Source: Rubripirellula obstinata
Lineage (GTDB): Bacteria; Planctomycetota; Planctomycetia; Pirellulales; Pirellulaceae
Direction: 5' to 3'
NCBI RefSeq assembly: GCF_001642955.1
Contig: NZ_LWSK01000025.1
Location: forward strand, 1 to 59,916
Length of the DNA stretch: 59,916 nt
Below are positions 17,941 to 59,916 of the stretch, in pieces (within the stretch, counting starts at the first letter, position 1; every line of letters starts with the position of its first letter). Position numbers and translations under genes: made by a program. The notes beneath the pieces are model-generated. The model was not told the origin of the DNA. It did no database searches and saw nothing but the letters and a program-made list of their open reading frames with translations.

Positions 17941-17951
17941 AGTTGGGGAAT

Positions 17952-17980: not shown

Positions 17981-17993
17981 AATCAATCCGAAA

Positions 17994-22170: not shown

Positions 22171-22223
22171 GGTTTAGAAACCCTTCACGGCGGTGGGTTC
22201 GGTTCATGCTTGGATCGGTATCC

Positions 22224-23673: not shown

Positions 23674-23751
23674 TTGTTTAACCGCGTGGGCATCGCCCCG
23701 CGCGTCCACCCGGAACAAAACGCGCGGGGCGATGCCCACGCGGCTAAACAA
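23674..23751. repeat. Family C palindrome, copy 3
   Basis: Near-perfect inverted repeat from TTGTTTAACCGCGTGGGCAT to its complement, with a short loop CCACCCGGAACAAAA. Confidence 0.9.
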
Positions 23752-23760
23752 GCGTTGTAC

Positions 23761-23784
23761 AGAACCCCGGCGGGCCCAGCTACG
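23761..23784. repeat. Family D repeat, diverged
   Basis: AGAACCCCGGCGGGCCCAGC followed by TACG: the family D sequence with several substitutions. Confidence 0.7.
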
Positions 23785-28286: not shown

Positions 28287-28362
28287 GTAGGCCGTAGCGA
28301 GCCATAGCGAGTTACGGCAGTTTGCACACCGCCGTAACTCGCTATGGCTCGCTACGGCCTAC
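28287..28362. repeat. Family A palindrome, copy 5
   Basis: Nearly identical to copy 1 (inner arms GCCATAGCGAG and CTCGCTATGGC), located between the convergent sdhB and kinase genes. Confidence 0.9.
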
Positions 28363-45400: not shown

Positions 45401-48400
45401 TTTCGGCCAGTTACGTCTACTTTGGCCCGTTCGACTTGGATGGCATCCAGTCGGTCGAGCAGTTTGCGAACCTGATCATTCGCGGTCGCACGGTGGCCGG
45501 CGGCAGCGGCGACTTGACCGGCGACGGCGTCGATGACCTCGTGTTGATTCGGCGCGGGTTTGATGAAGCAAATCCAAATGCGCCCGTCATGGAGATCTAC
45601 AGTGGGGGCTTTGGGGTCGATCGCGAACTGGACGTCAACTCTGCCATTTACCAAACGGCGCTCAACGGTGAGAACGATGACGCAGCGAACATTGAGTTAA
45701 TCGACTGGGATGGCGACGGGCTTTCTGAGCTGTTGGTTTCGTTCGACCCCGAATGGTTAGGTTTTCGCGGCTACATCGTGGGCTTTGACCCGGACGCGAG
45801 CGAGTCCGAAGAACTGATCGCCAGCGTGAAACTGCTTTCATTGCGGACCGACGAATTGACAGCGCCCGTTGGCACGACCGTCAATCCTGACGCACCAGTG
45901 ACAACTCGGCTGATTGGCGATGTCAACGGCGACGGAAAAGACGACATCGCTTTGGTTTCGCCCCACTTGTTCACTCGCAACTCGGACGGAATGCCGATCG
46001 GTCAAACCTTTGTCGTTCTGGGAGGAACGGTTGATATTAGCAATCCCTCTTCGCCCAACATCAATGCGACCATCGATAGTGGCGTCGTCATCAGCGGCAC
46101 GGCACTGGGGCAAGACATCTTTCCGCTTGGTGACATCAACCGAGACGGCTACGACGACTTTGCCATTTCTCGCACGCTGGAAGGCACCGGAGAATTGGAA
46201 GGCGGCCTGCTGATCTATCACGGCACGGCCGACTTTGTTGCCGACCCAGCACCGCCCATTGAGTTAACCGATTCCTACGATGATGCGGCTTACCGAGTGT
46301 CGCGCCAGGGAGTCAGCGACTTGGCAGCCGGAACCGCGCTCACGGGTCCCATCTTCGCCGCCGCGGGCGACTTCTTCGGGGCGCGGCGTGCCGATCTCGT
46401 TGTGGGCATTCCGAGTCAATCGACTTTGAATCTAACCTCCGGCGTTGTGCTTCAAATGGATCGACGTGGCCAAGTTGGAATCATCGATGATATCCACGGG
46501 GTGGGGCGTTTTTACAGCATTACGGGTGCAGGTCCGATACCCTTGGACGTGCAGTTGACTCCACTGACGGGTTCCACGTCGTCAGATTTGGCTGGGTCCA
46601 TCGCTCGCGGACCACTTTCGGATCTTAATGGTGATGGTTTGCCGGACTTGTTCATCGGTGCCGCCGGCTTCGATGGTCTACGAGACGGGGTTCAGGTCGA
46701 TGCGGGACGCGTCTACTTTATCCCGGGTCAGCCACCGTCGTTTTTGCCAAATCTGTCGACTGAAATCACCGTACTGGAAAACGATGGCGGTCGAATGATC
46801 GATCGTGGCTCTGATATGCCAGAAGTATTCGGCTCGTCTGGCAGCCAGGACGATCCCTACTTCCTGCGCGTCGGTCGTTCTTCTTGGTTCCAGTTTACGA
46901 CAGCGGGCGATGGTGGGGCATCGTCGAACCAAGCCGACCACATTCGAATTGAAATGTTGTCGGGCGAAGCGGATCGAAACAACAGTCCGATTCTTGGCGA
47001 TTTGATCACGGCCGATGGTGAAGTGATCAGCCAGAATCAGCGGATTACCGATCTAAGAAATCTAAAAGCCGGAACCTATTTCTTTCGCGTTCATCGTAGG
47101 AACCAGTTCAGTCCAAGAACCGAACTTGAATTTCAAATTCAGTTCGATGCACCCACGTTGGGCAATTCACATCCATCCACCGATCGCGATCGGATCGATG
47201 GCGGACCGGGCAAGGATCAATTGATCGGCGGCGCGGGATTGGACGTGCTGTTTGGCGATGATGGCCGGGACCGATTCCAAGCCGAAACGATTGAGATTTT
47301 TGATCTGGATCGTGCCGATGGCGAGTCGTTCACAATCGACCCAATCCGCAGCAACGAAATCATTGTCGGATCCGATCAGGTGGTCTTGGATGGACCGTCG
47401 ATCGACCACCATTTACGAGTCGGCATCGCACGTGCGCTTGGGCACGTCATCACAATGCGTCCAGACGGAGTCGAAGTCGCCAGGGAGCCGATTCTCGCCA
47501 GCGAGATGGCTCAATTGGAGCGGTTGGATTTGTCGGGTATGCAGATCGCTGATCTCAGCGGTTTAGAATTTGCCATCAACTTGCGTGTGTTGGACCTTAG
47601 CGACAATGAAATCACGGACTTGCCATCGGTCGAAGACTATCCCTACCTGCAAACATTAACACTCAGTAGCAACCGGATCACCGACCTGTATGAAATTGCC
47701 GGCGCCAGCGTCGTCGACAATATCGATGCTGGTTTCAGCGAAGTGTCCGGTGTTTGGCAAAGTCAGGTGCGAATCAGCGATGATGCCAACTTGGGTGGCT
47801 ACCGATTTACCGACACCGACGGTGGAGTCGCGGATTTCGAGCTAAATGTTCCACTTGGCGAGAGCGTCGAATTGCTGGCGACTTGGCCGATCCTTGGCGA
47901 GAACGCCGCAACCGATGCGGCTTTCAGCGTCTATGACGGTGACAACTTGATTGCGACCATTCCCGTTTTGCAGACGATTGCCCCCGATGATTCGGGAGGT
48001 GTTCCGGGATGGCTTTCGCTCGGCCAATTCACCTTTGAGACCGATTCTGCGCGGCTACAGCTATCGGCCACCAACGGGATAGTCGTCGCCGATGCAGTGA
48101 TGTTGATTGCAGGCACGCCCGCGACGGCGAACCTGACGACGTTGAACTTGGAAGACAATCCGCTGGATGATCTTTCACGTCAAGCATTGATTCCCATCGT
48201 CGAGTTTGCTGGCATCGCGGTGACGGTTTCCGCGCCAACTGCCGATTTCGTGATTGAGCCCATTGCCGATCAACTCGTCAGGCATGGCAGTCTAGCGCTG
48301 GACGATCAAGTTGCGGTGTTGCCCGCTTCGGTTCTTGATGGTGCCGGTTCGTTCTTGATCGAATTTTGGTACCAAATCGATCAGGCGAGTGACCAGACGG

Positions 48401-51400
48401 TGGTTTCATCGGTGAACCAATTCGGAAACGACGATTTGCTGATCCAGTTTACCGATTTCGGTCAATCGCTGTTGGTCGATGTTGAGTCCACCGATCGTCA
48501 ATACAGCCTTCCGGCCAGCGTCCAGCCCGGCACATGGCATCATTATGCGATTGAGCGGAACGTTGGTGACTTTCAAATCAACGTCTATGTCGATGGTACT
48601 TTGATACCAACAGATCGATTCTCAATTTTTTCGATTGGCAACCTTGATGTGGGCGATCGCGCCCTGGTCATCGGGCAAGAACAAACCGCAGTCAACGGTG
48701 GATACGTTTCCGGCACGGCAGCGATCGGTAAGATCGACGAACTGAGATTCTGGGATCCGTTTTGGGAGACCGGCGGGCCGACGATCCAGGAACACTTGGC
48801 GGCCAACCGCCATCGCACGGTGCCGCGCGATTCACCCGGACTTCGTGCCGCGTATCGCTTTGACGATCAATCCACCGTCTTTGCAGTCGATGCTTCGATC
48901 AATGGGCGCGATGCTGTCTTGGGAGATCCGACCGGCGGCGCTGGCGACCAGCGAAATGCGCCGACGCGATCTTCATCGGCTCCCGTTCATTCAGTTTTGA
49001 ATGTCGATCTAACCACCGGTGCTGACTACTACACCGCCAACAGTTCCAATCCGGACGTCATCACCAACGTGGCCGGCAATCAATTGCAGTTGGAATACCG
49101 CGCCGACCAAACCGATGATTCGGTGATTACGGTCGCAGCATTTGGAATTGACGGACAACAAACACGCACCGGGTTCAACTTGCACGTCGATACTTCTGCC
49201 AGTGGAGCTTTTGATCCTGATCAGGCGAGTGAGCTGACGTTTACCCGTAATGGCAGTTTGCAATCCTTCTTCAACACTTACGGCGATCGGCTACAGCAAA
49301 CACCCAATGTCGAGCTGGATTTTTCAAGCAATGCATCGATTAGCGGTTTTTCCTTTTCCGGCCTGGAAGACGTGCTAGTTGTCCAGAGGGGTGTGGAATC
49401 TCAGGACATCGTCGAAATCACGTTCAAGGCGGATCCAGGTTACGAGGTCGCTTTACACGGGCTGGAGTTGGGGAACGCGGCTAACTTTTCGTTTACCATT
49501 CCGCGGTTGGAAGTCTTCAATCAAGATGACACAAGTCTGTGGCTTCAATCAAATCGTCAAATTAGCGGTACAAACGTAGCCCACCAGGATCTCAATTTTC
49601 CGCAAACAGTTTTTGGCGATGAGCTGACTCTTGTTTTTGAACCGGGTACGGTCTTCGTCGGCCTTGACAATGTTCGCTTCAGCCAACGAGCCAAGTCGCT
49701 ATCTTCTTCCTATCACCACGGTCAGGTTTTCGATGACGCCAACGACGATGGCCAGCAGCAGCCAAGCGAAGTGGGGCTGCCCGGCACAACGGTCATTCTT
49801 CGCGATCAATCCAACAATGTGATCGCTAGCAGCATCACAGATTCATCCGGGTTTTACCGTTTGATTGGCACCCCAGCATTGGACGTCCGCCGAGTCGAGG
49901 TCCTTGCACCGGATAACTGGTCGCTGACCACGGCGAGCTCGATCGCGTTGCAACTTGAACCGGTGCTTCCCGTTTTGCAGTCCACCGATTTTGACTTCCA
50001 GTACGAATTCGATGTCAACCCAACGAGCGTGGATTTGGATGAGAATGGCAGCAATGACTGGGACGCCAATCCCAGCGGTTCCCTGACGGTTAGCGAAGGT
50101 CTGCTGACGACCGATCCCGGTGAAACCTTGACCGCCAATCTTCGTGAGACCACTTCATGGCAAACCTATGCACCGACGCTGGAGACCGGATTCACGGTTG
50201 AGCTTTCCGCTGCGGTTCTTTCGCAAGGAACCGGACCCAGTGCTAGACGAGGTGCCTTCCAGGTGGTGGTCTCGGCCGGTGGAACTTCGACAAGTGCCGC
50301 ACTGTTGTTGTCTGAGAATTCGGTCGGCTGGCGAAATGATCCAGCAGCGCTTGGCGTCTTTGATGATCAGGATCAACAACACGTTTACCGCATCGTTCAG
50401 ACACCCGGGGCGGATGAGTTTTACGTGTGGCGCGATAATGTCCTGCTCAATCCAGGTGGACTGCCGCTTTCATCGGGTGTTCAGAACATAACAGAAGCCC
50501 AAATCTATCTCGGCGATGGCAGCAGCACGATCTCTGGCACGACCGCTGTCGATTATTTGCGATTCACCCGCGGTGCGTTCTTACCCGAGACTGCGGAAAT
50601 AAATTTTGGACTGAGTCAGCCGGTTCGTATCGGTGACGACCGAATCGTGTCCACTGGAACGCCGCAAGTCATCAACGTGCAATCCGAAATCGCGGGTCTT
50701 AACTGGACCTGGACGATCGATGGCATCGCAGCCGAACCGGCGTCGGATAATACGTCGCTGAACTTCACGCCTGCGGTCGAAGGTGACATCGTGATCGGTG
50801 TGACGGCCACGACGCCGGGCGGAACGTTGTACTCCGACCAGATTTTGGTGCGAGCATCTGACACACCAGCTCAACCTCTGATCTCGCTTTCGCCCAATCA
50901 GGGTTCCGCACCGCTGGCCAGTTTCAATACTGGTATTCACGAAGGCGAATCGTTCACAATTTTCGCGGATCTATCAGCTATGGGACTCGAAAACACAGCG
51001 GTTGACTATCAGTGGACGTTGATCGATTCGGCAGGAAACACGGTCGACCAACAGTCCGGATCAAGCCTTGTGCCGGATTGGGAATTGACCATCGGCGACG
51101 ATGGAGAATACGAAGTTACGTTGACGGTCACTAACGGAACCAGCCAAACCACCTCCTCGCCGCTGCCGATTGCCGTAGACAATGTTGCACCGGTACTGTC
51201 CCTGCCTGCCACGCCTTCGGTACTCGGAGATTCGCCGCTGACTTTCTCGGGCAGCTTTACCGATCCTGGGGATGATGTTTGGTTGGCGACGGCGGATTTT
51301 GGGGATGGGAATCGGCGGCCTGTGGTTTTGGAAGAGGACAAGACGTTTTCGATTGAACACGAATTTGATCAGCCCGGTGTCTATCGGGTGTCGGTGACGG

Positions 51401-52356
51401 TTGACGACCAGGACGGCGGGAAGACCTCGCGGACTTTCCGCGTGGCTTACGATCCGTTCGCGCCGACGATGGTCAATGCGGCGGGACGGATCAACGAGAG
51501 TGCTGACGCTTCGCAGGGAGCGGTGTTTGTGTCGCGTTTGGATGTCGATGACAGGACCGATGACGATCGGCATGTCTTTGAATTGATCGCGGGCGAAGGT
51601 TCGACCAACAACGATCTGTTTGAAATCCAAAACGGTTCGATCTTTTGGATCGGTGACGAAACCGTGGACTCCGAAACCACACCATCGTACCAAGTTCGCG
51701 TTCGCGTGACGGATTCGGCAGGCAATGTTTTGGAACAGGCGTTGGAAATCGAAGTCAACGATGCCAACTACGTCAAAGATGTTCGCATCGGAACAGCGGG
51801 CTCCCAAGGCAGCGCTCAGCGGTCCAGGATTGACCAAGTCGAAGTCGTGATTGATGGCGAGGTGCAATTGTCGCCCGGTGCATTCAAGGTGGAACGAATC
51901 GGAGCATCGGCGGGAACAGTGGAAACGGTTGTCAGTTCGCGAACCGTCGATGGTGATACGGTCGTCACGATTACCTTTGTCAACGAATCGGATCCCGGTG
52001 AATCGGTATCACTCGTTGACGGCAACTATCGTTTGTTGATCGACGCCACCACGCTTCGCCGCGATGGCAACCGAGTCCAGTTGGACGGCGATGGTGACGG
52101 AAACACGGGTGACGATTTCGTCTTCGGTGAAATCGCCAGCGACGGTTTCTTCTCGTTGTACGCCGACACCGATGGCGACGGCAGGGTGGGACTTTCCGAC
52201 TTTGCCACGTTCCGAAGTGCCTTTGGGACGTCAGATCGAGACGCGGGCTTCTTGGACTATTTGGATGCCAACAGCGACGGCACGATCGGCTTAGCCGACT
52301 TCGCCGCCTTCCGAAGCAGCTTTGGAAACGAGCGTCCCAATGATCTGGGCCAATAG
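33436..52356 (+). CDS. 6,306-residue exported giant protein with RTX, FG-GAP, LamG, PKD, cadherin and dockerin modules
   Basis: One uninterrupted frame of 18.9 kb. QLESRQLLSA (residues 41-50) is the planctomycete LExRxLL signal. Residues 50-2240 are acidic beta-rich repeats of no clear family; a flagellar hook IN-like motif (DGVTTVDDVIAAIN) lies near 905. RTX calcium-binding GGxGxDxL repeats occupy about 2295-2560, 2608-2815 and 2932-3069, with short blocks near 3510, 3720 and 4590. FG-GAP repeats (DVNGDGIEDV) span about 3969-4430. Then come leucine-rich repeats (about 4689-4755), a golvesin-like domain ending in VVADAVMLI (4762-4894), a LamG-like domain (4949-5156), an SdrD/Cna-B-like domain (5431-5509), PKD (5816-6000), a cadherin-like domain (6009-6112) and two EF-hand/dockerin repeats (6242-6302). 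Calcium-dependent adhesion is inferred. A palindrome is inserted in frame at 41991-42038. Confidence 0.94.
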   Translation: MSVHNSTRLRRNRISDAGRSSDARSVFNNRGWTKRRMLMEQLESRQLLSANPLTPRQQTQLDTQLSSLTSFADHVDDRAELNRPLAFLGTSFNEHLDISDVVQSSLVEPLTTFIVPGQSQSSDDVAGLLQGSQAGDLVVSFAPVEIVDDGELTFATTLYATRSVQYDVDLGVNGDNLGLSLSDVETRTAEFSLKFELQFGVEAGTDGEFFTRIESLQTSVTDTTQLVAGSPMPELETLTEDVTFSLLINDDTTITATVPANTAGNLTPLPERITAALATPLADAGFSDAIVGSDDSGRLALRAISADVRSFALVDAGGLAALGFADGQSSSSNFNPTFDYGLIALDSDDAGIAITGVMDVFADDGGDSRLSADELNAAPVLTTQARRGGSLESRLQPSSGTIVAGNPTARASIARLFSAGPLAVTPDGFDELDRLHDRVSQTLRDGFAAITQFGERLETETGLGNVLPALDISFAGATDLDALLRSKLQTTVEDLLAVNDRPSWEDVRAALQNQGLTVSEVDETGDAASFDIGLQQTDTTQTRLTNGDAAEDDGFAATEDQRPELTLQTTSNWAFEVTVDRSGEQSPLEAFVVVFDRADHGAEVTTGTISFDANVGLLGVTATGTPAMDATLSATIDNGQSVTAAQLINQPIATLVATSETGQLDLDLTLAATLSGVPFTATMGLSPGAVFGGQSELQAVDFGQVEDFVNFTANELSGGVSQIGRWLGDFAEAKLTRDMPLAAARQVSELLDLRGVFESQIASLLSNDEGQLNFGTIQELDALTDFISNPNYDQASNELTFTVSFDGVPEFADLEILSPEFDFDFEIGDFKALTADGSFTLSPSVFGEFVLGIDLTPIGAGSEAIDIDGSTLLSELNDGMGVQDINDNNPDIVITQRDGTSHVITFDGVTTVDDVIAAINVATPVALTAALYDQNGDQNGIVTGIRLTDNSVGDTVFAVDGVDGSLAGFGLGILGETDDTNVDDGRATINGGALHGDTPAHHLFVEEIAGRPIAGGKIELTSGEFSATANLGITEVEITGASILGAAAAAGLGDVPSFVQADVGLPKPRMTVAELFDSLRDNVDEATKVVADFTGSIQVEFPTSFLNVGNSQSVDDAAFVATINEFGDDLVADVSGDIDSVLAQLGEIDAGEILDGLKDGLTDLLNFDGLKLPILNIELPDAAGLQTLLADVTAAIDTIGSATLDVLSDGIQRLANLDPARPEIDFPEIEISLPDLFGFFDHAQEMAPEEGSGDTFSLPDFESLIRDLFDFEVDLPDVEIPPEEFGVFLDGVVTILDQLQLSGPGSLQGLEAKLEEAIGLGEEGVTLQIVTDNPNASSTSAVEVRFDLNLSDMIEANYPINIDLADLGVDIPGVGDLIDVGGSASVRLSAGVAANLALGLEIASGESVTVTPFLYTGADGTALTLTAGAVADDIDFEASVGPLGIAIVDGVAGVTGNDTAQDASFIVSLDDGTPGDGRYLFDNTIDFGITADGQLSASLPIEFPTGSALETLDLSVDFDAQTAQQLRDGFAITSNFADVQTALQNQIDSFGDDISGNLLALVGGWEGAFDLLTDAMRGDVLGVPLPIIGEALADEADFLQEIKQSVLDNLQSFETLGVSIVQTEIFNALGPGGLDLLDVLTGDGTLAQHYVLADTSDSGSVDFDIRIAKAAEPIEVNPDFDLGLPGLNFDLDADVVLDFGFAFDLGFGVSLDEGFYFDTDDTNLVVSFDAAVPNLDASGQLAFLGVQATSGIGDDGLPQTRFSGAFDVTLNDPTAAPNSADAKRLTLSEMFASDLSDVVQHQLNANAQANLHLVASIGNPDVLPSIRTDLIVDWGFGDGIDSGTPLSVEFTEVEMNIGEFFAGFAGDVLGRVQDVLEPVQPVIDVLTTRLPVISDFGGSDVTLVDLARMFGRADVADFLQSIVDVNDLINSLPDPSSFDETNTWVSLGGFAVDASALGGFDPAADPDAPVMIKELKLPEIPNPQDILGQVGTGSTPGGGFKNNLAGAKGELSFPLLESPTTAFNLLIGRDVDLFLYDAPALGIDFSYNQSFPTPIPGLFAEIGGRIAAVADFAFGFDTSGISQFSETGFLPDIFDGFFVSDRANPDGTGADVAEAYLRGSLTAGGKIDVLIAAAGVRGGIFAEVDFNLNDPDRDGRVRAGEIAENFALGPIHVFDVDGRVDAGVNGFYRVLFFEDEFEIARVNLLNFDIARPTGAELPALATQSAGGELTIPFTSGDDDYSIIPGQTAGSIIVQGQGRQSGEFLNVTSIVGNSGSGDDIVTISPKIFVPVTISGGAGNDQLSAGGGPTAFNGGTGDDRLTGGLGEDNLDGGDGNDVIIGGAGVDQLSGGAGDDYIDGGRGADLISGGDGNDQLFGGFDADVIDGDAGDDVIEGGRGGDVIRGGAGDDRVSGGRGDDSIEGGLGSDELDGDEGSDFIDGGDGSDRVRGGERNDVLRGGEGDDEIDGGSGDDEIRGGSGDDLLRGGVGRDDLFGDDGDDLIYAVDDASGNETIGGFIDAGAGNDVVYGSFGDDVIVGGLGDDELHGLDGSDLIWGGLAAYASSNFDISNPNLFELPPRFVEASNLDNSDYSPTILVTPRVVSGFSVPGNVPDGDDLIDGGAGTDFLFGGSDADTIFGGEDADYIDGGSGDDGNLFGDAGDDVIRGGSGADVIRGGTGIDQIYGDAGRDLLRGDSGGAGQRLFGGDDVDTLYAWNDATSGSTGEALFGGAGGDFLYGAGANAFLFGESGPDYLVGGLGDDVLDGGGGQDQLYGGEGDDELRGGADGDWLEGQLGSDTLVGGGGIDFLILDVGAQHASGDQESFDGHGDGTPDDNATDVLLVNGTKGNDTITLSATPLPLAGEVGLSGPGEGLRVIFDTPNHTQTINATWQSTDGPLIEQFRVSTGNGNDTITFDPSLDLSELSERSRDFVTVVEAGPGNDTIIGSGARDRIDGGRGSDTIFGNGGDDRLWGDQGPGDGSSNDVDTIYAGQGNDDVLGGQGTNRLYAWSSDPTASAPFGIFNNNGQLEDTGLNRIIGGPGEDHLYGGTGLDLLYGGEGDNTLYSRTGSKMEDLDAGAGDVDWKDYARQNDQVWYVGGSNRDDQINLEYVTEIGFAQDHHLITRLTRNVSDNGTPDEFFTLSASVRLDFAATDNNGVLIWDPDDVFADNRLIQDDDPIARAEALNTTFSDAEALSRLLPPEDDFRAIIIDALDGDDVINVGPTVQKTVWVDAGAGDDTVLISSGNAILIDQTDLIGSRNNSIDHPFDLASPAAISGEEVDISDYVLQEDATFTLIVDQLEQHITVTVDSGTTIENESLLDLAADINLALRQAGAEGLAVASVSGDIIVLSGMTADPTSRLAINAHPEDPAVTQWKLPSNASASVSSILSSSVRYTGLTIDNPSDIDFYRFTTSTAIGDPNIESIILVDSLRRDDGMTLAVFVEGESEPVDPIDAAQGSYSLLADTTYVIRVASDATPTVYDLTIDLAAGSAALPVDYATKIEFERRDVIFGGDGNDVLQGGPGEDFIFGGAGNDVLTGGSDRGASDLLFGEDGDDTFQTIPDFLPTLTGTTTTYLPTQSDRFAGGEGDDRVVFLGGDLDNDQQPINDLAAVRFNRLLQRYEISTLVWDTAGQSFAASDDPDSTTSLLRGYHFFTALGVDQMQVDLGAGDDTWHADGESSYVFPGDQTGATWGINEGDVQSGARIFDQIEVLGGAGNDQLFGGSVSERFDGGTGSDFISGGLGDDQIAGGEGDDVLLGGSGIAPDDLEFVSRSFGASVNDTYVFSAELTPLLQIGIPQHLNFHQGDTVDWYAVSPGTLPQFDDRPIAPVTADMIRVVDVDNGEDVRFTLFDAEVTGIGDELLLVPVEDPIANPQNFLIRVDNQLESESKLQTASRQYRVELLEPFTLADGGAGDEVVDPGDDSSVDRQFAAARLATPVVPSPPSTDPPGLDLRSPTRLRDAVTIEGTAEGDRLSGARSIGDVNGDGIEDVVIEGVSASYVYFGPFDLDGIQSVEQFANLIIRGRTVAGGSGDLTGDGVDDLVLIRRGFDEANPNAPVMEIYSGGFGVDRELDVNSAIYQTALNGENDDAANIELIDWDGDGLSELLVSFDPEWLGFRGYIVGFDPDASESEELIASVKLLSLRTDELTAPVGTTVNPDAPVTTRLIGDVNGDGKDDIALVSPHLFTRNSDGMPIGQTFVVLGGTVDISNPSSPNINATIDSGVVISGTALGQDIFPLGDINRDGYDDFAISRTLEGTGELEGGLLIYHGTADFVADPAPPIELTDSYDDAAYRVSRQGVSDLAAGTALTGPIFAAAGDFFGARRADLVVGIPSQSTLNLTSGVVLQMDRRGQVGIIDDIHGVGRFYSITGAGPIPLDVQLTPLTGSTSSDLAGSIARGPLSDLNGDGLPDLFIGAAGFDGLRDGVQVDAGRVYFIPGQPPSFLPNLSTEITVLENDGGRMIDRGSDMPEVFGSSGSQDDPYFLRVGRSSWFQFTTAGDGGASSNQADHIRIEMLSGEADRNNSPILGDLITADGEVISQNQRITDLRNLKAGTYFFRVHRRNQFSPRTELEFQIQFDAPTLGNSHPSTDRDRIDGGPGKDQLIGGAGLDVLFGDDGRDRFQAETIEIFDLDRADGESFTIDPIRSNEIIVGSDQVVLDGPSIDHHLRVGIARALGHVITMRPDGVEVAREPILASEMAQLERLDLSGMQIADLSGLEFAINLRVLDLSDNEITDLPSVEDYPYLQTLTLSSNRITDLYEIAGASVVDNIDAGFSEVSGVWQSQVRISDDANLGGYRFTDTDGGVADFELNVPLGESVELLATWPILGENAATDAAFSVYDGDNLIATIPVLQTIAPDDSGGVPGWLSLGQFTFETDSARLQLSATNGIVVADAVMLIAGTPATANLTTLNLEDNPLDDLSRQALIPIVEFAGIAVTVSAPTADFVIEPIADQLVRHGSLALDDQVAVLPASVLDGAGSFLIEFWYQIDQASDQTVVSSVNQFGNDDLLIQFTDFGQSLLVDVESTDRQYSLPASVQPGTWHHYAIERNVGDFQINVYVDGTLIPTDRFSIFSIGNLDVGDRALVIGQEQTAVNGGYVSGTAAIGKIDELRFWDPFWETGGPTIQEHLAANRHRTVPRDSPGLRAAYRFDDQSTVFAVDASINGRDAVLGDPTGGAGDQRNAPTRSSSAPVHSVLNVDLTTGADYYTANSSNPDVITNVAGNQLQLEYRADQTDDSVITVAAFGIDGQQTRTGFNLHVDTSASGAFDPDQASELTFTRNGSLQSFFNTYGDRLQQTPNVELDFSSNASISGFSFSGLEDVLVVQRGVESQDIVEITFKADPGYEVALHGLELGNAANFSFTIPRLEVFNQDDTSLWLQSNRQISGTNVAHQDLNFPQTVFGDELTLVFEPGTVFVGLDNVRFSQRAKSLSSSYHHGQVFDDANDDGQQQPSEVGLPGTTVILRDQSNNVIASSITDSSGFYRLIGTPALDVRRVEVLAPDNWSLTTASSIALQLEPVLPVLQSTDFDFQYEFDVNPTSVDLDENGSNDWDANPSGSLTVSEGLLTTDPGETLTANLRETTSWQTYAPTLETGFTVELSAAVLSQGTGPSARRGAFQVVVSAGGTSTSAALLLSENSVGWRNDPAALGVFDDQDQQHVYRIVQTPGADEFYVWRDNVLLNPGGLPLSSGVQNITEAQIYLGDGSSTISGTTAVDYLRFTRGAFLPETAEINFGLSQPVRIGDDRIVSTGTPQVINVQSEIAGLNWTWTIDGIAAEPASDNTSLNFTPAVEGDIVIGVTATTPGGTLYSDQILVRASDTPAQPLISLSPNQGSAPLASFNTGIHEGESFTIFADLSAMGLENTAVDYQWTLIDSAGNTVDQQSGSSLVPDWELTIGDDGEYEVTLTVTNGTSQTTSSPLPIAVDNVAPVLSLPATPSVLGDSPLTFSGSFTDPGDDVWLATADFGDGNRRPVVLEEDKTFSIEHEFDQPGVYRVSVTVDDQDGGKTSRTFRVAYDPFAPTMVNAAGRINESADASQGAVFVSRLDVDDRTDDDRHVFELIAGEGSTNNDLFEIQNGSIFWIGDETVDSETTPSYQVRVRVTDSAGNVLEQALEIEVNDANYVKDVRIGTAGSQGSAQRSRIDQVEVVIDGEVQLSPGAFKVERIGASAGTVETVVSSRTVDGDTVVTITFVNESDPGESVSLVDGNYRLLIDATTLRRDGNRVQLDGDGDGNTGDDFVFGEIASDGFFSLYADTDGDGRVGLSDFATFRSAFGTSDRDAGFLDYLDANSDGTIGLADFAAFRSSFGNERPNDLGQ
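40320..41090 (+). other. First RTX calcium-binding block of the giant protein
   Basis: About 28 nonapeptide-type repeats of GGxGxDxLxGG form (for example GGAGNDQLSAGG, GGRGGDVIRGG). Such repeats fold as calcium-bound beta rolls outside the cell. At the DNA level they are diverged, so this is not a recent tandem array. Confidence 0.9.
41991..42038. repeat. Family B palindrome inside the giant gene
   Basis: 11-base perfect arms (ACCTCTCCCGC and complement) around TT, followed by a second CGGGCTCTCAGGCCCG hairpin and another GGGAGAGGG. Read in frame as PLPLAGEVGLSGPGEG between beta strands that flank it with ordinary repeat sequence. Confidence 0.85.
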
Positions 52357-52622: not shown

Positions 52623-53672
52623 GTTTCTGCCAAAGCACCGGACGAGAAATCGGGTCGCGGCCGTCAGTCTTCAACCAAGAAAAAAGCCGAGAAGAAAACG
52701 TTCGGCAGCAAGATCTTTGCGAGTCACGAATTCGGCTATCGGCGAATCACGATCGAGCGACCACTGCGTCTTTCGGTCCAGTTCTCAGGCGTCCGAATCG
52801 CCACGCTCCGCTTTGAACCCGGCAAGCTCAACGCGGCGATGCAGAAGGTCTACGAACAATTCCCGGAAGCCTTTCCCGATTCTGGCTCCCCTCGCCCCGC
52901 TTCGGGGAGAGGGGCTGGGGGTGAGGGGCCATCGAGCGCCACCTACGGCGATCTCTCCACCGTCGAAGCCGAAATCCGAGCCATGGTCAAAGCCGACTTT
53001 GCCGACCTCAAAGAAAAACAAATCAAAGATCTCCTCGACCCCAAAACATGGACGGCCCAAAAAGAGCTGCTCGACAATGCCATCAAGCTGCAAGCCGCGA
53101 TCGGAGAAAACCAGCACGACGACTTCAACGAGTTCGAGGCCACGCTGAAGCAAGCGATCAAGGACGCCGATGTCGAGTTAGACGCGAAGCAGAAAAAGCA
53201 AATCATCGCCGCCGTCAGTTGGACCAACCCCGACGCCGAGCCGGTGATCAAAAAAGTCATTAGCCGTTTGGGCGCTAGCCCCGGCTCCAAGAGCAATGGC
53301 AAACCGACCCAACCCGATCCAACCTACGGAACGTTCGAGTACAAAAACCAGATCGTCCAGTTCCAGCCCGACAGCGACTTGCGAGACAACGAAGACGTGC
53401 CGTTAACCGAAGGCACCGCACGCGGCGCAAACGTGGACGCGGTCAATGAAGCGTATTTTCACAAAGAAGTCGCCCCCCACGTCCCCGACGCCTGGATCGA
53501 CAAAGGGAAATGTGACGCCAAGGACGGCGGGGTCGGCATCGTCGGCTACGAGATCCCATTCAACCGACATTTCTACGAGTACCAGCCCCCGAGGCCACTG
53601 CAAGAGATCGACGCCGAGTTGGATGAACTAAGCAGCGAGATCATGCAGATGCTGCAGGAGGTTCACTCGTGA
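52623..53672 (+). pseudogene. hsdM: Type I methyltransferase subunit HsdM, 5'-truncated
   Basis: Only the C-terminal third of HsdM is present. The frame opens after a stop at 52620-52622, and without any good start codon it reads [20 protein letters not shown] and [20 protein letters not shown]; it ends with [33 protein letters not shown] and [17 protein letters not shown], all typical of the HsdM C-terminus. The first ATG is at 52839 (277 codons). The N-terminal helical domain, SAM-binding FxGxG and catalytic NPPY/F motifs are absent from the window, so methylation activity is not expected. A 45-base family B palindrome is read in frame ([14 protein letters not shown]). The stop overlaps the GTG of hsdS, preserving the usual operon junction. 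Confidence 0.88.
52884..52928. repeat. Family B palindrome in the hsdM remnant
   Basis: 45 bases exactly equal to the reverse complement of 56920-56964 in hsdR. Internal hairpin of 12-base arms with one mismatch around CTT (CCCCTCGCCCCG and CGGGGAGAGGGG). Its length of 15 codons keeps the frame open. Confidence 0.95.
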
Positions 53673-55081
53673 GTGAGTCACGATTCAAACCGTATGCCGA
53701 ATACGAAACAGTTGCTTGCGGCTGGATTGATTGTGTCCCGCAATCATGGGTTACTACGACTCTGGGAAAAGTGACATTGGACAAATGTGACGGACCTTTT
53801 GGCTCAGGTTTGAAGTCAGAGCACTACAGCGAGTCCGGGGTGCAAGTTGTGAGGCTTCAGAACATCAAGTCTGATGGTTACAGGACGGGGACTCCAGTTT
53901 TTATCGACTTCGACTACTATCATCGCGCTTTGTCGAATCATGACGTAGTGCCTGGTGACGTTCTCATCGCTGGGCTTGGTGACCCGAACAACCCAGTCGG
54001 AAGAGCTTGCGTCGCCCCAGATGGCATTGCTCCTGCGATGGTCAAAGCAGATTGTTTCCGATTTCGTCTAAATCAATCCAAAGTGCTACCACACTTCGTT
54101 GCGTACCAACTTTCGGCAGGTTCTTGGTTTGATTCAAAAACCATGTCTAACGGGTCGACACGTGCCAGGATTCCATTGAACTCAATGGCCAAGCGATCCT
54201 TGGTTTATTGTTCATTGCTAGACCAACAATCAATCGTCGAGTTCCTGGACTACGAGACGGCGAAGATTGATGCGTTGATTGAGAAGCAGCAGCAGCTCAT
54301 CGCCTTGCTCGGGGAGAAACGTCAGGCCGTCATCAGTCATGCGGTCACCAAAGGCTTGAACCCCGACGCCCCCATGCGAGATTCCGGCGTCGAGTGGTTG
54401 GGCGAAGTGCCCTCGCATTGGGACGTTGTAAACCTGAATGTTGTCACAGAAATCGGAAACGGTTCGACGCCGGATCGAAGTACGCCGCGATACTGGGGCG
54501 AAGAAGGTGATTTCCCATGGCTCAACAGTTCAGTTGTGAATCAAGCCGAAGTGCATGAGTCCGACCAGTTTGTTACGGAAGCTGCGATACGTGAGTGCCA
54601 CCTGCCACACATATTGCCGCCAGCAGTTTTGGTCGGAATTACCGGGCAAGGGAAGACGCGAGGGATGGCTACGATTCTCCGAACGGAAGCCACGATTAAT
54701 CAGCACGTGACTTACATCCAGCCTCGGAATGAGCGAGTTACAGTTCCTTTTATCCATCGCTTCTTTCAGATGGCCTACGATCATATCCGCTTTGAAAGTG
54801 AAGGAGCAGGAAGCACCAAGGGGGCGATTACGTGTGGACAACTTGAGAAAACGAAGATTTCACTTCCGCCTCCAGACGAACAACAACGGGTGGTGCAATA
54901 CCTTGGTGACTTCGCAACGAAATTTGCTGATCTCATTCAAAAAGCTGAAGACGCAAACAAACTTCTCCGCGAACGCCGCACCGCACTTATCTCCGCCGCC
55001 GTCACCGGCAAGATCGACGTGCGTGGCTGGCAGCGTCCTTCCGCTGATCCCAAAAAAGAAACCGAAATGGAGGTCGCATGA
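53669..55081 (+). CDS. hsdS: Type I restriction specificity subunit HsdS
   Basis: DNA-recognition subunit of the HsdR2M2S complex. 470 residues with two target recognition domains: the first ([23 protein letters not shown]) and second ([26 protein letters not shown]) each begin with the typical PxxW(x)TLG-like start. Each is followed by a conserved helical spacer ([48 protein letters not shown] and [22 protein letters not shown] with [19 protein letters not shown]). Both halves look intact. It starts with GTG 53669 overlapping the hsdM stop (GTGA) and ends in ATGA with the next frame. Without HsdM it is not expected to act. Confidence 0.93.
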
Positions 55082-55430
55082 ACGCTGACTTCCACTTGAG
55101 ATGCAGGGCGCAGGGCCAAAACTCAACAGCCAAAACTCAACAACCGATGTTGGCACATTGTCGTTCAGCATGCAGCGGCAGTTTGGCGGCTGGATCGGTT
55201 TTCATTTCATTCCAAACCCGCCGAATGGGATCTGCCGGTCGTAAGTCCATACGCCGGCTGGGTTTGCTTATTTCATCGCAACCCGTACTTGCGATCTTCG
55301 CTGGTAGATGTTGGTGGGGCGTGGGTAAAGAATCCGAAGAAGCACCCTTCGTGCAGGCCGTCATGGACCCAATGGAAGTTGGGCGTAGGGAGCCCATGGA
55401 TTGTGCCCTAGGCGAGGGTGGCTGCTGACG
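55082..55430. other. 349-base region between hsdS and the DUF3800 gene
   Basis: Holds a direct repeat CCAAAACTCAACA (twice, about 55117-55143) and a 116-codon frame starting at the ATGA overlap with hsdS. That frame has no domain and an odd composition, and is not called. Its first codons ATGAACGCTGACTTCCA resemble the true hsdR start GTGAACGCAGACTCCA at 56468. Confidence 0.55.
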
Positions 55431-56270
55431 ATGGCAACCGAGTTTGTGATCTATACCGATGAGTCCGTGAAAGATGGAGCCTACTTCTCCAATTTCTATG
55501 GGGGCGTGCTGGTCCGGTCGCGTGATCTATTGCGTGTGACCGCCCAACTTTCACAGTGCAAGGCGGAACTAAACCTTCACGGTGAATTGAAGTGGACGAA
55601 GGTGACCGAGAACTACCTGAACAAGTACAAGACGGTGATGGACGCTTTCTTCGATCTGGTGGCCGCTGACTTGGCCAAGGTCAGAATCATGTTCACCAAC
55701 AACACCTTCGTTCCGCAGGGACTGACATCGGAACAACGTCAGTCGGAGTATCACCGACTGTACTACCAATTTATCAAACATGGCTTTGGGCTGGCGTTCT
55801 CAAACGAGCAGCACGACGGGCCGAAGCGGGTCCGGTTGAACATAGATCAAATGCCCACCAGCCGGGAAGAAACCGCTAAGTTTAAATCCTTCATCGAGGC
55901 TTTGTCGCGCAACCCCGAAATGCGTCGAGCGAATGTCGACTTCGATAAGCAGCAAATCGCGGAGGTAGATTCCAAGGACCACGATCTTTTGCAATGCCTC
56001 GACGTTGTCCTGGGGGCGATGACGTTCCGACTGAACAACTTGCACCTGGTCAAGCCCGCGGGGCAAAGCAGGCGAGGCAAACGCACGGTCGCCAAGGAAA
56101 AACTCTACAAGCATATCTCTGCGAGGGTGCGATTGATCTACCCGCACTTTAACATCGGTGAGTCGACCGGCACGCAGGGTGATTTGGCGAACCGCTGGAG
56201 GCACCCTTACCGACACTGGAAGCTGGTGCCGCGGGATCACGATCGCGACATGACCCGCACCAAACCATGA
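55431..56270 (+). CDS. DUF3800-family protein inserted in the RM operon
   Basis: 279 residues with the DUF3800 hallmark near the N-terminus, FVIYTDESVKDG, followed by the typical GGVLVRS strand and a C-terminal ELDxxxHDLLQCLDVVLGAM-like region (VDSKDHDLLQCLDVVLG). The family has an RNase H-like fold by prediction and is often found next to restriction-modification and other defence genes; its biochemical role is not established. ATG 55431 is preferred over an upstream GTG/TTG start because YTDES then begins at residue 8 and GAGGG precedes it. It lies between hsdS and hsdR on the same strand and splits an otherwise standard hsdMSR order. Confidence 0.85.
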   Translation: MATEFVIYTDESVKDGAYFSNFYGGVLVRSRDLLRVTAQLSQCKAELNLHGELKWTKVTENYLNKYKTVMDAFFDLVAADLAKVRIMFTNNTFVPQGLTSEQRQSEYHRLYYQFIKHGFGLAFSNEQHDGPKRVRLNIDQMPTSREETAKFKSFIEALSRNPEMRRANVDFDKQQIAEVDSKDHDLLQCLDVVLGAMTFRLNNLHLVKPAGQSRRGKRTVAKEKLYKHISARVRLIYPHFNIGESTGTQGDLANRWRHPYRHWKLVPRDHDRDMTRTKP

Positions 56271-56467
56271 TTCCGTCACTGCATAAAAAAACCCCGTGCT
56301 CACTATGTCTTGCGACGTGCCCCAAGTGGAACTTGAGCCTTCGAGAGCGACAGGGCCTACGAAAATGATCGGCTAGAACCAACGGTAAGTCAAGTCTGAC
56401 CGGAAATTCAGGACCAAGAAAAAATGCCGTCAAAGTTAAATGGCACCAAATCACAAGAGAAAACAAC

Positions 56468-59400
56468 GTGAACGCAGACTCCAAAGAAGCCGCTTTTCAA
56501 CAGGACATCATCGACCAAATGGTCGCTGGCGGTTGGAAGCTGGGTGATCCGGCCAAGTACGACCGCCGGCTGGCGCTCTACACCGATGATTGCCTGCAGT
56601 ACGTTAAATCGACTCAGCCCAAGATGTGGGAAAAGTACACCAAGCTTTACCCGGCCGGCCCCGAGCAAGCGTTCATCGACAAGCTGGCCTCGCAGCTTTC
56701 CAAGGCTGATCCGCAGGCGAGCGATAAATCACTTCGCACCTTCGGGACGCTGGGTGTGCTGCGGCACGAACTGCGCGACAAATCGGCGTCGTTCAAGATG
56801 TGCCAGTTCAAACCCGAGCACGGTTTGAACCCGGACACGCTGGCGATGTACGAAGGCAACATTCTGCGAGTGGTGCCGGAGTTGGTTTACAGTCCGTGGA
56901 CGAAAGCCGAGGCTGAAAACCCCTCACCCCCAGCCCCTCTCCCCGAAGCGGGGCGAGGGGAGCCCGGCTCATTGAAGGTCGCCAAGGCATGGCGGATCGA
57001 CCTGGTGTTGTTCGTCAATGGCATCCCGGTTGCGACAATGGAACTGAAAAGTGAGTTCAAACAGGCGGTCGATCGAGCGATCACGCAGTACCGAAAAACT
57101 CGGCTGCCCAAAGATCCTGAAACCAACAAGCCTGAACCGCTGCTAACCTTCAAACGTGGTGCTCTGGTTCATTTTGCTGTTAGCCAGTACGAAGCCGCGA
57201 TGACGACACGGTTGGCGGGAAGTGAAACCCGTTTCCTGCCCTTCAACAAAGGCACCAAGGATGGCGGTGCGGGCAATGATACGCCCGGCGACGTCAATGA
57301 ATACGCGACGGGTTATCTGTGGAACGAAGTGCTGGCACCAGCGAATCTGTTGCAGATCATCGGTCGGTTTATTCACCTGGAAATCAAAACCGATGAGGAT
57401 TGGGACGGACGGAAAAAGAAGACGGAAACATTGATCTTCCCCCGCTATCACCAATGGGACCTGGTCCGCAAACTGATCCAGTCCAGCCGCGATGAAGGCC
57501 CCGGCCACAAGTATCTGGCGCAGCACAGTGCCGGATCGGGCAAGTCCAACAGCATTGCCTGGACGGCACACCAATTGTCGTCGCTCTACAACGATGCCGG
57601 CGACAAGGTTTTCCATAGCGTGATCGTGGTCACCGACCGCACCGTGCTGGACGATCAATTGCAGGACACGATCTACCAGTTCGAGCACGCCGATGGCGTC
57701 GTCGGTCGCATCAACCGCGACGAGGGCCAGGGATCAAAGTCCGAAAAACTGGCCGCTGCACTGGAGAATAGCCAGCCGATCGTGATCGTGACGATCCAAA
57801 CGTTTCCGTTTGTTCTCAAAGCAATCGAAAACAGCGTCAGCCTGAAAGAACGCTGCTACGCCATCATCGCCGACGAAGCCCACAGTTCGCAGTCGGGTCG
57901 TACCGCGGGGCAGCTAAAAGAAGTGCTGTCGACCGAGGCAACCCATGAAGATGCAGAGACCACCGCCGAAGATGCACTCGCCGCCAGCGTTCAGGCTCGC
58001 AGGTCTTCCGCTAACCTCAGCTACTACGCCTTCACAGCGACACCCAAAAGCAAAACCCTGGAATTGTTTGGGCGACGTCCCAAACCGGATGAACCGGTGG
58101 CGAAGCGAAATAAACCGGTGGCGTTCCATGTCTACAGCATGCGACAGGCGATCGAGGAGGGCTACATTCTGGACGTGCTGCAGAATTACACCAGCTACAA
58201 GGTGGCTTACAACTTGGCACAAAAGATTGCCAAGCCTGATTACGAAGTTGACGCCAAGAAGGCCAAGGTGCGGCTGGGCCAGTGGGTGCGACTGCACGAT
58301 TACAACATCGCTCAAAAAGTGATGGTGATCGTCGAACACTATCGCACGACCGTGATGGGGCTGCTGGGTGGGCATGCCAAAGCGATGGTGGTGACGGGGT
58401 CACGCAAGGAAGCGGTCCGATACAAATTGGAATTTGATAAGTACATCAAAAAAAAGAAGTACAGCCAGTTGGCGGCGATGGTCGCGTTCTCGGGTGAAGT
58501 GACGTTCAACAACGATGATCCCAACGCGGCAGCATTGGTTGGCGAAAAGTTTACCGAGTCAGGCATGAACCCTGGCCTGAAAGGTCGCGATATGCGGAAG
58601 GCATTCGATACCGGTGAATACCACTTGATGATCGTCGCGAAGAAGTTTCAAACGGGATTCGATCAACCAAAGTTGTGTGCGATGTACGTCGACAAAAAGC
58701 TTGGCGGGCTGGAGTGCGTGCAGACTCTGTCGCGGTTGAATCGAACCTTCAAAGGCAAAACGGACACCTATGTGCTGGACTTTTTCAACGAGCCAGCGGA
58801 GATTCTGGAAGCGTTCCAGGAGTACTACGAAACCGCCACGCTGCTGGACGTGTCGGACCCGAACCTGATTTGGGATCTGTTTGACAAGCTGCGGGGATCC
58901 GGCGTTTTTCAGTGGTCCGAGGTGACTCAGTTTAGCGAAGTGTTCTTCGTCAAGAGCAAGAGTAACGCGGCGATCAGCAACGTGTGTCGGCCAGCGGTGG
59001 ACCGTTGGCAACACCGTCACCAGGCGGCACGAAGCGAATACGAAAAGCACAAGAAACTTTTCGTTCATGCCAAAACACTGGGGGATCCGACCTTCATCGC
59101 CAATGCCGAAGGCGACATGAACGAAGCGAAAAAGGAGTTGGACGCACTGGGCATGTTCAAGGCCGACTTGATGTCGTTCACCCGGTACTACGAATTCATG
59201 TCTCAGATCGTTGACTACGACAGCACCGATCTGGAAAAGCTAAGCCTCTTCGCTCGGCACTTGGCACCGCTGTTGCGAGAAGAAGCCCCGCTGGACGACC
59301 CCATCGACCTGACGTCGGTTGCACTGAGCCACTACCGATTGTCCAAGATCAAACAGCAAGACTTGACGTTGGTTAAAGAGGGCGGCGAGGGGCTTCGCGT

Positions 59401-59755
59401 TTCGGCTGATCTTGGCACAGGCAAAGCCAAATCGAAGCAGGAAGAATTGCTTTCACAGATCATCGCCCGCCTGAACGAGCTGTTCGTCACCGATCAATTG
59501 ACCAACAAAGACTTGGTAAATTATCTGTACACGATCCGCGACAAGGTCAACGAAAACCAACGCGTCATGCATCAGCTCGAAAACAATTCGCCCGAACAAG
59601 CATTGCTAGGCGATTTCGCCGGTGCAGTCGACGATGCCGTGATGAACAGCGGCGAAGCCCATCAAAACCAAATGACGCAGTACCTAAACAACCCAGAACT
59701 CGCGACCAAGTTCCAACGACTGGTCTTCGACCTGCTGCTGGCCAAGGGAGCGTAG
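56468..59755 (+). CDS. hsdR: Type I restriction endonuclease subunit HsdR
   Basis: Motor and nuclease subunit of a type I restriction enzyme. 1,095 residues. The PD-ExK nuclease site is seen in WRIDLVLFVNGIPVATMELKS (D178, E192, K194). The helicase has Walker A SAGSGKSNSIAW (about 355-366) and the DEAH box ADEAHSSQSG (D469), then YYAFTATPKSKTL, VVTGSRKEAV and a QTGFDQPKLCAMYVDKKLGG motif VI region. The C-terminal helical domain that contacts HsdM is present to the end. GTG 56468 is the start. A 45-base palindrome is read in frame ([16 protein letters not shown], about 151-166) just ahead of the nuclease core. The gene looks intact, but its methylase partner is truncated. Confidence 0.95.
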   Translation: MNADSKEAAFQQDIIDQMVAGGWKLGDPAKYDRRLALYTDDCLQYVKSTQPKMWEKYTKLYPAGPEQAFIDKLASQLSKADPQASDKSLRTFGTLGVLRHELRDKSASFKMCQFKPEHGLNPDTLAMYEGNILRVVPELVYSPWTKAEAENPSPPAPLPEAGRGEPGSLKVAKAWRIDLVLFVNGIPVATMELKSEFKQAVDRAITQYRKTRLPKDPETNKPEPLLTFKRGALVHFAVSQYEAAMTTRLAGSETRFLPFNKGTKDGGAGNDTPGDVNEYATGYLWNEVLAPANLLQIIGRFIHLEIKTDEDWDGRKKKTETLIFPRYHQWDLVRKLIQSSRDEGPGHKYLAQHSAGSGKSNSIAWTAHQLSSLYNDAGDKVFHSVIVVTDRTVLDDQLQDTIYQFEHADGVVGRINRDEGQGSKSEKLAAALENSQPIVIVTIQTFPFVLKAIENSVSLKERCYAIIADEAHSSQSGRTAGQLKEVLSTEATHEDAETTAEDALAASVQARRSSANLSYYAFTATPKSKTLELFGRRPKPDEPVAKRNKPVAFHVYSMRQAIEEGYILDVLQNYTSYKVAYNLAQKIAKPDYEVDAKKAKVRLGQWVRLHDYNIAQKVMVIVEHYRTTVMGLLGGHAKAMVVTGSRKEAVRYKLEFDKYIKKKKYSQLAAMVAFSGEVTFNNDDPNAAALVGEKFTESGMNPGLKGRDMRKAFDTGEYHLMIVAKKFQTGFDQPKLCAMYVDKKLGGLECVQTLSRLNRTFKGKTDTYVLDFFNEPAEILEAFQEYYETATLLDVSDPNLIWDLFDKLRGSGVFQWSEVTQFSEVFFVKSKSNAAISNVCRPAVDRWQHRHQAARSEYEKHKKLFVHAKTLGDPTFIANAEGDMNEAKKELDALGMFKADLMSFTRYYEFMSQIVDYDSTDLEKLSLFARHLAPLLREEAPLDDPIDLTSVALSHYRLSKIKQQDLTLVKEGGEGLRVSADLGTGKAKSKQEELLSQIIARLNELFVTDQLTNKDLVNYLYTIRDKVNENQRVMHQLENNSPEQALLGDFAGAVDDAVMNSGEAHQNQMTQYLNNPELATKFQRLVFDLLLAKGA
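56920..56964. repeat. Family B palindrome in hsdR
   Basis: Exact reverse complement of 52884-52928. Inserted between residues 151 and 166, N-terminal to the nuclease Asp. It encodes a Pro/Gly/Arg-rich linker. Confidence 0.95.
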
Positions 59756-59859: not shown

Positions 59860-59916
59860 GTAGGCCGTAGCGAGCCAAAGCGAGTTACGGCATTTTGCGC
59901 ACCGCCGTAACTCACA
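59860..59916. repeat. Family A palindrome, copy 6, cut by the window edge
   Basis: Begins GTAGGCCGTAGCGAGCC downstream of hsdR, with loop CATTTTGCGCACC and the start of the right arm GCCGTAACTC. The last bases diverge from other copies, or the element is shorter here. Confidence 0.8.

What the first reader, a model, noticed from the sequence alone, without database searches (positions are those of the whole stretch)
52884..56964. Identical 45-base palindromic element in two RM genes, opposite orientation, both in frame
Seen directly: 52884-52928 and 56920-56964 are exact reverse complements. Each is open in its host frame and encodes a different low-complexity Pro/Gly/Arg segment (in HsdM and in HsdR). 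The length is exactly 15 codons. Known parallel: Rickettsia palindromic elements insert in frame in coding genes. Inference: a mobile or gene-converting palindrome that tolerates insertion in proteins, active after the RM operon formed, since both copies are still identical.
Basis: partly seen in the sequence, partly recalled or inferred. Interest (0 to 1): 0.75.

Follow-up and report, generated by a model that had tools for sequence, protein, structure and literature searches.

The report
Palindromic repeats invading restriction genes in-frame
Two identical 45-base hairpin repeats sit in frame inside two genes of a bacterial restriction system, and related enzymes from distant bacteria carry other short palindromic repeats in the same protein loop, which suggests that restriction genes collect such repeats as they move between hosts.

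Summary
Observation confirmed: 52884-52928 and 56920-56964 are exact reverse complements, in frame in hsdM (only its 3' part here) and hsdR. In HsdR it is an insertion: the loop is 31 residues in the window and 16 in 63 of 79 homologues, exactly 15 codons less. Of five relatives read, four (G469, G514, G443, G436) have the 16-residue loop and G460 holds a different repeat there. The HsdM copy recurs at the same place in G469 and G460. Identity does not date the copies: the exact 45-mer occurs in six other Pirellulaceae genomes. The host genome shows only these two. The family is a REP-like hairpin repeat, mostly outside large ORFs, with no Y1/RAYT transposase beside it in the genomes compared. 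The unexpected result is recurrence: this HsdR loop, just before the catalytic Asp, holds other palindrome-type repeats in 7 of 79 homologues from two phyla, and in-gene copies of the 45-mer family recur in adenine methyltransferases (other HsdM genes, one BREX PglX). Best reading: mobile restriction operons pick up palindromes in repeat-rich hosts, keep those in tolerant loops in frame, and carry them on. Some non-RM genes, DNA-acting ones among them, are hit too. Transposition mechanism and function are not shown.

The parts
52884..52928 (-). Repeat copy 1, in frame in hsdM (encodes [15 protein letters not shown]); family match extends to about 52881-52929
   Evidence: 44 of 45 identical at the same place in G469 and in G460
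56920..56964 (+). Repeat copy 2, in frame in hsdR (encodes [14 protein letters not shown])
   Evidence: absent in G469, G514, G443, G436; G460 has another repeat there
56897..56989 (+). HsdR loop of 31 codons between ..VPELVYSP and WRIDLVLF.., 16 codons in 63 of 79 homologues; recurrent insertion site just before the PD-(D/E)XK Asp
52626..53672 (+). hsdM, 3' part only (C-terminal about 348 aa; no Pfam match by itself); the N6_Mtase half is on contig C18
53669..55081 (+). hsdS (PF01420 Methylase_S)
55401..56270 (+). DUF3800 protein (PF12686) inside the operon
56468..59755 (+). hsdR (PF04313 HSDR_N, PF18766, PF04851, PF22679)
52631..52757 (.). 127-bp exact overlap with the end of contig C18, which carries the hsdM N-terminal half: assembly fork or strain variant

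Best explanation
The two 45-mers are copies of a small REP-like hairpin repeat of Pirellulaceae, inserted in frame into tolerant loops of type I restriction-modification proteins. The HsdR copy was found in this genome only; the HsdM copy sits at a site also occupied in two relatives. RM operons move between hosts. In repeat-rich hosts they are hit by whichever palindromes abound there. Selection removes hits that break the enzyme and leaves in-frame hits in a few loops (one in HsdR just before the catalytic Asp, several in HsdM). The operon then carries these to hosts where the repeat is rare or of another type. Shown: insertion in HsdR, recurrence at the same loop, few or no other pattern matches in several present hosts, in-gene copies recurring in adenine methyltransferases. 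Inferred: that transfer explains the concentration in RM genes. Unknown: the enzyme that inserts the repeats.
For: Net 15 codons: the HsdR loop is 16 aa in 63 of 79 parsed homologues (80 fetched) and in G469 (89% identical), G514 = Stieleria tagensis, G443 and G436. Recurrence: 7 of 79 loci (L038, L041, L051, L055, L069, L092, L102) carry palindrome-type inserts, by my reading, in that loop, as does G460 with four copies of another repeat. In 112 HsdR rows (three of them duplicates) the inserts of at least 8 aa that I judge palindrome-type fall in this loop except one, L178. On the tree of 107 the 10 inserted rows need 9 changes and are no more clustered than shuffled labels (133 of 500 as low). 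Iodobacter L055 and L069 are 94.3% identical in hsdR DNA but hold different inserts. In 80 loci a palindrome regex hits 4 times, all in that HsdR loop; 0 in 414 kb of other ORFs and 0 in 246 kb outside ORFs. Few other copies in hosts: own genome 2 of 2 in this operon; G295, G296 and G297 have one exact pattern hit each, the HsdR one. In G460 the only exact hits of the second repeat are two in the HsdR loop, while 29 of its 40 hits end GAGGAA instead of GAGGGA. Methyltransferases: HsdM at L259, L260, L294, L261 (G469), L262 (own), HsdM in G436 (L194), PglX in L307; G460 has 3 of its 9 family places in HsdM genes. Patchy distribution: HsdR of at least 82% identity in 8 of 241 family genomes over six genera, own included, three of them partial matches.
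Against: Donor and order of events are inferred. The 45-mer pattern came from an RM copy, which may bias the sample toward RM genes. Non-RM genes are hit in frame too: OEP, CpaB and amidohydrolase ORFs, and, with related palindromes, DNA- or RNA-acting genes: RecC, SMC, TmcA and UDG ORFs in Thiothrix G300 and an Lhr helicase ORF in L015 with two copies. So the bias may be toward DNA-acting enzymes, not RM alone. Some copies in the G460 RM locus have the host-like ending (at C1:210356), and in G514 the second repeat is abundant (375 hits), so those inserts may be local. The regex has 0 hits in 128 kb of hsdM. A generic hairpin scan showed no excess: hsdR 3 in 261 kb, hsdM 1 in 128 kb, other ORFs 25 in 414 kb. 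The pattern allowed no mismatch, so variant copies could be missed; whether the inserts of L069, L092 and L102 are repeats in their genomes was not established. The HsdM copy is more conserved (44 of 45) than its flanks (107-132 of 150), which a single old neutral insertion does not predict.
Confidence: 0.55

Rival explanations
1. Local copying: the HsdR copy was made from the HsdM copy inside this operon by gene conversion, template switching or transposition.
For: The two copies are identical and the only two found in a 6.58-Mb genome; the HsdR copy is absent in four relatives read.
Against: The exact 45-mer is found also in G306, G391, G445, G453, G455 and G460, so an outside source gives the same result. 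Identity stops at the 45-nt core; the family flanks TCT and C of the HsdM copy are not shared by the HsdR copy.
Confidence: 0.2
2. Targeted or adaptive decoration: RM and other DNA-acting genes are preferred or selected because the inserts change the enzyme (for example lower restriction, or spoil binding by anti-restriction proteins).
For: Same loop beside the active site used repeatedly by unlike repeats; 3 of 7 N6_Mtase genes of G460 carry the family repeat; HsdM copy better conserved than its flanks; other DNA-acting genes hit in frame.
Against: No functional data. Loops that merely tolerate insertions explain the sites. Genes without a link to DNA are also hit.
Confidence: 0.18
3. Ordinary RAYT-driven REP transposition in the present host.
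For: Hairpin repeat with family-wide ends; 11 Y1_Tnp matches in the host genome.
Against: No other copy in the host by the pattern. Comparing listed coordinates, no 45-mer copy lies within 10 kb of a Y1_Tnp match in G306, G381, G453, G507, G396, G407, G400, nor a family place in G460. In G470, which has many family hits, two lie 8-10 kb from Y1_Tnp matches, about what their number would give. G274 has 10 hits of the family 23-mer and no Y1_Tnp match.
Confidence: 0.04
4. Native low-complexity Pro/Gly/Arg coding sequence, alike by chance.
For: GC-rich, low complexity.
Against: Exact 45-nt match, the same 45-mer outside large ORFs in other genomes, gap of exactly 15 codons in homologues.
Confidence: 0.01

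Closest known systems
Intragenic GTAG and CGTC REPs (Di Nocera et al. 2013, PMC3733652; section 15 seen whole, passages elsewhere)
   Same: Small palindromic repeats, mostly intergenic, some wholly inside ORFs; many of the hit genes act in DNA synthesis and repair (uvrA, recBCD, dnaE2); recB of two Xanthomonas species is hit at about the same site by different REPs.
   Different: The element here has neither GTAG nor CGTC at its ends; the words restriction, methyltransferase and hsd do not occur in that paper's main text.
Rickettsia palindromic elements (RPE; recalled, and described in passages of PMC3733652)
   Same: In-frame insertion in protein-coding genes.
   Different: Sequence not compared. 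Here unlike repeats in two phyla share one loop of one enzyme family, and the inserts can be the only copies found in the host.
REPINs and RAYT-associated REPs (Nunvar 2010 PMC2817692, Bertels and Rainey 2011 PMC3116915; start of abstracts in a listing, and one find without hits in the first)
   Same: Short hairpin repeats in many copies in some genomes, homogeneous within a genome (14 of 15 copies in G306 and 9 of 11 in G381 end AGCA).
   Different: No Y1/RAYT gene found beside copies.

Membership tests
REP / RAYT-associated repeat | short hairpin repeat, many copies in a genome | tested here: inconclusive
   G306 15 copies, G381 11, but only 2 in the own genome
REP / RAYT-associated repeat | GTAG or CGTC terminal tetranucleotide | tested here: not met
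   family ends read GCCCCTCACC...GGGGAGCCAGA in many copies
REP / RAYT-associated repeat | RAYT (Y1 transposase) gene flanked by the repeat | tested here: not met
   coordinates against in nine genomes, nearest 8 kb (G470); G274 has hits but no Y1_Tnp match; the other genomes with copies were not searched for Y1_Tnp
Rickettsia-type in-frame palindromic element | inserted in ORFs in frame, absent at the site in homologues | tested here: met
Rickettsia-type in-frame palindromic element | sequence homology to RPE families | not tested
   no RPE sequence was compared
Rickettsia-type in-frame palindromic element | host protein still made and functional | not testable with these tools
   reading frames intact; needs expression data
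Type I restriction-modification system | HsdR, HsdM, HsdS together | tested here: met
   hsdM N-terminal half on contig C18

The most novel reading that the evidence does not exclude
Type I RM genes, and perhaps defence methyltransferases and other DNA-acting enzymes in general, are a cross-phylum in-frame landing zone for unlike palindromic repeats, with a hot loop beside the HsdR catalytic Asp. The inserts record earlier hosts of the operon and may tune restriction.
Probability: 0.42. Interest if true: 0.8.

Novelty: new variant of a known kind. Interest (0 to 1): 0.65.

Why it matters
In-frame palindromic insertions are known mostly genome by genome. Here one loop of one enzyme family is hit by unlike repeats in Planctomycetota and Pseudomonadota, a natural experiment on tolerated protein insertions. 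If the inserts mark earlier hosts, they give a way to trace the travel of defence genes beside phylogeny. If they change activity, they are a simple route by which restriction is tuned.

Tried and rejected
Gene conversion as the necessary reason for identity: weakened by exact 45-mers in six other genomes. Frame-0 length bias: not informative, because 45 nt is the commonest form of the family in general. Invertible switch between the two inverted copies: considered on reading the sequence and dropped, since inversion would join the first part of each gene to antisense of the other; not tested. RAYT link: not found. Generic hairpin scan: no excess in hsdR or hsdM; the stems of these inserts are mostly under 11 bp. 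The narrower regex was written after seeing the inserts, so it is a description with a within-locus control, not an independent test. The chance values (9e-7 for 3 of 9, 9e-8 for 6 of 85) rest on target fractions of 0.22% and 0.25% that I assumed, and the 6 of 85 counts two orthologues (own and G469) apart. The reversed-pattern control is of no use, because the pattern resembles its own reversal; many of its G443 and some of its G470 and G436 hits are simple-sequence runs. Rows dropped: L086 not parsed; 8 short HsdR left out of 120; L120, L124, L167 and two duplicates left out of the tree. L026 and G514 are the same genome and counted once. Not every hit was fetched: one of G306 and several clustered ones of G381 were read only if they fell in a fetched locus. 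Three of the 18 large ORFs (L282, L237, L263) were not scanned against family libraries. The structure model has mean pLDDT 63.6 and is used only to say that residues 151-174 are unstructured between two strands. Paper searches without a report of palindromes in RM genes: (listings only; others showed 15 of 140, 12 of 464 and 10 of 1,935).
Full report
Observation. The two 45-base copies are exact reverse complements at the stated places and in frame in both genes. The operon is hsdM (3' part here), hsdS, a DUF3800 gene and hsdR. The copy is a hairpin with a 14-nt tail rather than a perfect palindrome. The N-terminal half of hsdM is on another contig of the same assembly, C18, whose end matches window 52631-52757 over 127 bp at 100%. 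I read this as a k-mer overlap at an assembly fork (recalled habit of short-read assemblers) or as a strain variant; the join to the upstream 6306-aa ORF should not be trusted without reads.

Insertion. HsdR homologues were fetched from 80 loci of named genomes. In 79 of 80 the stretch between ..PELVYSP and WRIDLVLF could be read: 16 residues in 63, longer in 16. In the window it is 31, exactly 15 more. The relatives G469 (same genus, 89% identical HsdR), G514 (which is Stieleria tagensis, locus L026), G443 and G436 have 16; G460 has a different, longer insert. G404 and G430 gave only partial matches that do not reach the loop. So the HsdR copy is an insertion seen in this genome only. The HsdM copy is at the same place in G469 and G460, each 44 of 45 identical, and absent in G514 and G443. 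The 150 bases on either side are 71-88% identical in G469 and G460. On the HsdR tree G460 pairs with G443, and the window and G469 pair with G514. A single old insertion therefore needs losses or recombination, and the high conservation is odd for it; parallel insertion at one site fits better. This is not settled.

The family. In the own genome a 23-base family pattern with up to 2 mismatches is found only at these two places. In 241 genomes of the family the 45-mer with up to 3 mismatches is found in 35, and the exact 45-mer in six others (G306, G391, G445, G453, G455, G460). So identity of the two copies says little about age. Of 85 distinct copies read in context, 67 are not in an ORF of 250 aa or more and 18 are; these 85 leave out the window's HsdR copy and the G460 orthologue of the HsdM copy. 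Of the 18, six are in adenine methyltransferases: HsdM in L259, L260, L294, L261 (G469) and L262 (own), and a BREX-2 PglX in L307. The other twelve are OEP, CpaB, amidohydrolase, esterase-like (weak) and DEAD/IS3 ORFs, an ORF without match (L302), copies beside Tad, Band_7 and epimerase domains, and three at ORF ends that were not scanned. G436 has a related copy in the HsdM of the same RM operon but in another loop. In G460, three of nine family places lie in HsdM genes, out of seven N6_Mtase genes by my reading of the list, a fragment left aside. Two of these HsdM genes are hit at a similar spot, after LWFL(S/D) and before LFIDAR.

The hot loop. In the 79 HsdR read, seven have inserts in this loop that I judge palindrome-type from the sequence: L038 (Brocadiaceae), L041 (Sedimenticola), L051 (Endozoicomonas), L102 (Marinobacterium), L055 and L069 (Iodobacter), L092 (Thiothrix, short). 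The other nine longer loops are not palindrome-type by eye. G460 has four copies of a different planctomycete repeat there. Among 112 HsdR rows, inserts of this type and at least 8 aa lie in the loop except one, L178, at residue 261. The tree needs 9 changes for 10 inserted rows (quick tree), with L051 and L102 possibly one event. L055 and L069 are 94.3% identical in hsdR DNA yet have different inserts. By alignment to EcoR124I HsdR (weak by itself) the loop ends just before RYD, whose Asp is the catalytic D151 (recalled). A model of the first 264 residues leaves 151-174 unstructured between two strands. HsdM has comparable loops: KMRDYD..GGRIGIIL is hit by the CTCACCCC-type repeat in G436 and by another repeat in G460; a second loop by that other repeat in G514 and G460; a third by it in G460.

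Foreign inserts. In G295, G296 and G297 the only genome match of the insert pattern is the HsdR one. G294 has three matches, one of them HsdR; G300 has eight, none of them its HsdR insert; G298, G299 and G301 have none, and the pattern does not fit the inserts of L102, L092 and L069. In G460 the second repeat has 40 hits with up to 1 mismatch: 29 end GAGGAA, and the only two exact GAGGGA hits are in the HsdR loop; 6 of the 40 lie in the 12.5-kb RM region, one of them with the GAGGAA ending. With up to 4 mismatches the region has 23 matches of mixed endings. In G514 the same repeat has 375 hits, in the own genome 9, in G469 none. The RM family is patchy: HsdR of at least 82% identity in 8 of 241 genomes, six genera, 2 of 22 in the own genus. 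This fits an operon that gathers repeats in repeat-rich hosts and moves on. It does not exclude targeting or selection, and part of the G460 and G514 inserts may be local.

Not only RM. With related palindromes, ORFs with RecC, SMC, TmcA and UDG domains in Thiothrix G300 are hit (residues 499 of 809, 500 of 1009, 308 of 508, 48 of 269), and an Lhr helicase ORF of L015 twice. This matches the DNA-repair bias in PMC3733652 and suggests that DNA-acting enzymes in general may be the wider class.

Mechanism. The step shown is insertion of a repeat into loops without loss of frame. The inserting enzyme is not identified. Y1 transposases are in most of these genomes but not beside the repeats, and G274 has family copies without any Y1 match. 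Replication slippage or template switching at hairpins is possible but untested.

Literature. Intragenic REPs, many in DNA repair genes, and one case of a shared site in recB are described in PMC3733652 (section 15 seen whole; passages). Rickettsia elements are the in-frame precedent (passage there, and recalled). Six searches of the library listed no paper that by title or start of abstract treats palindromes in RM genes; lists were capped and most subscription journals are not in the library.

Verdict. Interest 0.65.

Noticed in passing
L357 (G436 contig C5); ORF L194:3-2747:-, about aa 823-889: The HsdM of the sister operon has a GIY-YIG nuclease domain (PF01541) inserted in frame near its C-terminus, absent in the relatives aligned.
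   Followed up: partly
window 52631-52757: Exact 127-bp overlap with the end of contig C18, which carries the hsdM N-terminal half: assembly fork or strain variant, so the join of hsdM to the 6306-aa ORF upstream is doubtful.
   Followed up: partly
L110, L115, L117, L119 (genome G300, Thiothrix) and L015: Related palindromes in frame in ORFs with TmcA, UDG, SMC, RecC and Lhr helicase domains, in line with the reported bias of intragenic REPs to DNA-repair genes.
   Followed up: partly
window 41990-42014: Another hairpin repeat (CCTCTCCCGCTTGCGGGAGAGG) in frame in the giant ORF 33436-52356, peptide ATPLPLAGEVGLSGPGEGL; 10 places in the genome with up to 3 mismatches.
   Followed up: partly
window 3183-3258, 4275-4356, 21988-22063, 28287-28362, 59860-59913: A separate family of long inverted repeats beginning GTAGGCCGTAGCGAGC, with GTAG at the end as in GTAG-type REPs.
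   Followed up: no
window 17911-18005, 22141-22195, 23674-23774: Repeat family with GCGCGGGGCGATGCCCACGCGG, in both orientations.
   Followed up: no
window 19175-19236: Inverted pair of a variant of the second repeat family (ACCCGAACGCGTAAGCGAGGGA), the one that fills the HsdR loop of G460.
   Followed up: no
L153 (G460), 12.5 kb: 23 matches of the second repeat (up to 4 mismatches) in one RM locus, inside and between genes.
   Followed up: partly
L150 (G469), hsdM: A second, degenerate copy of the repeat lies 17 codons before the intact one in HsdM.
   Followed up: no
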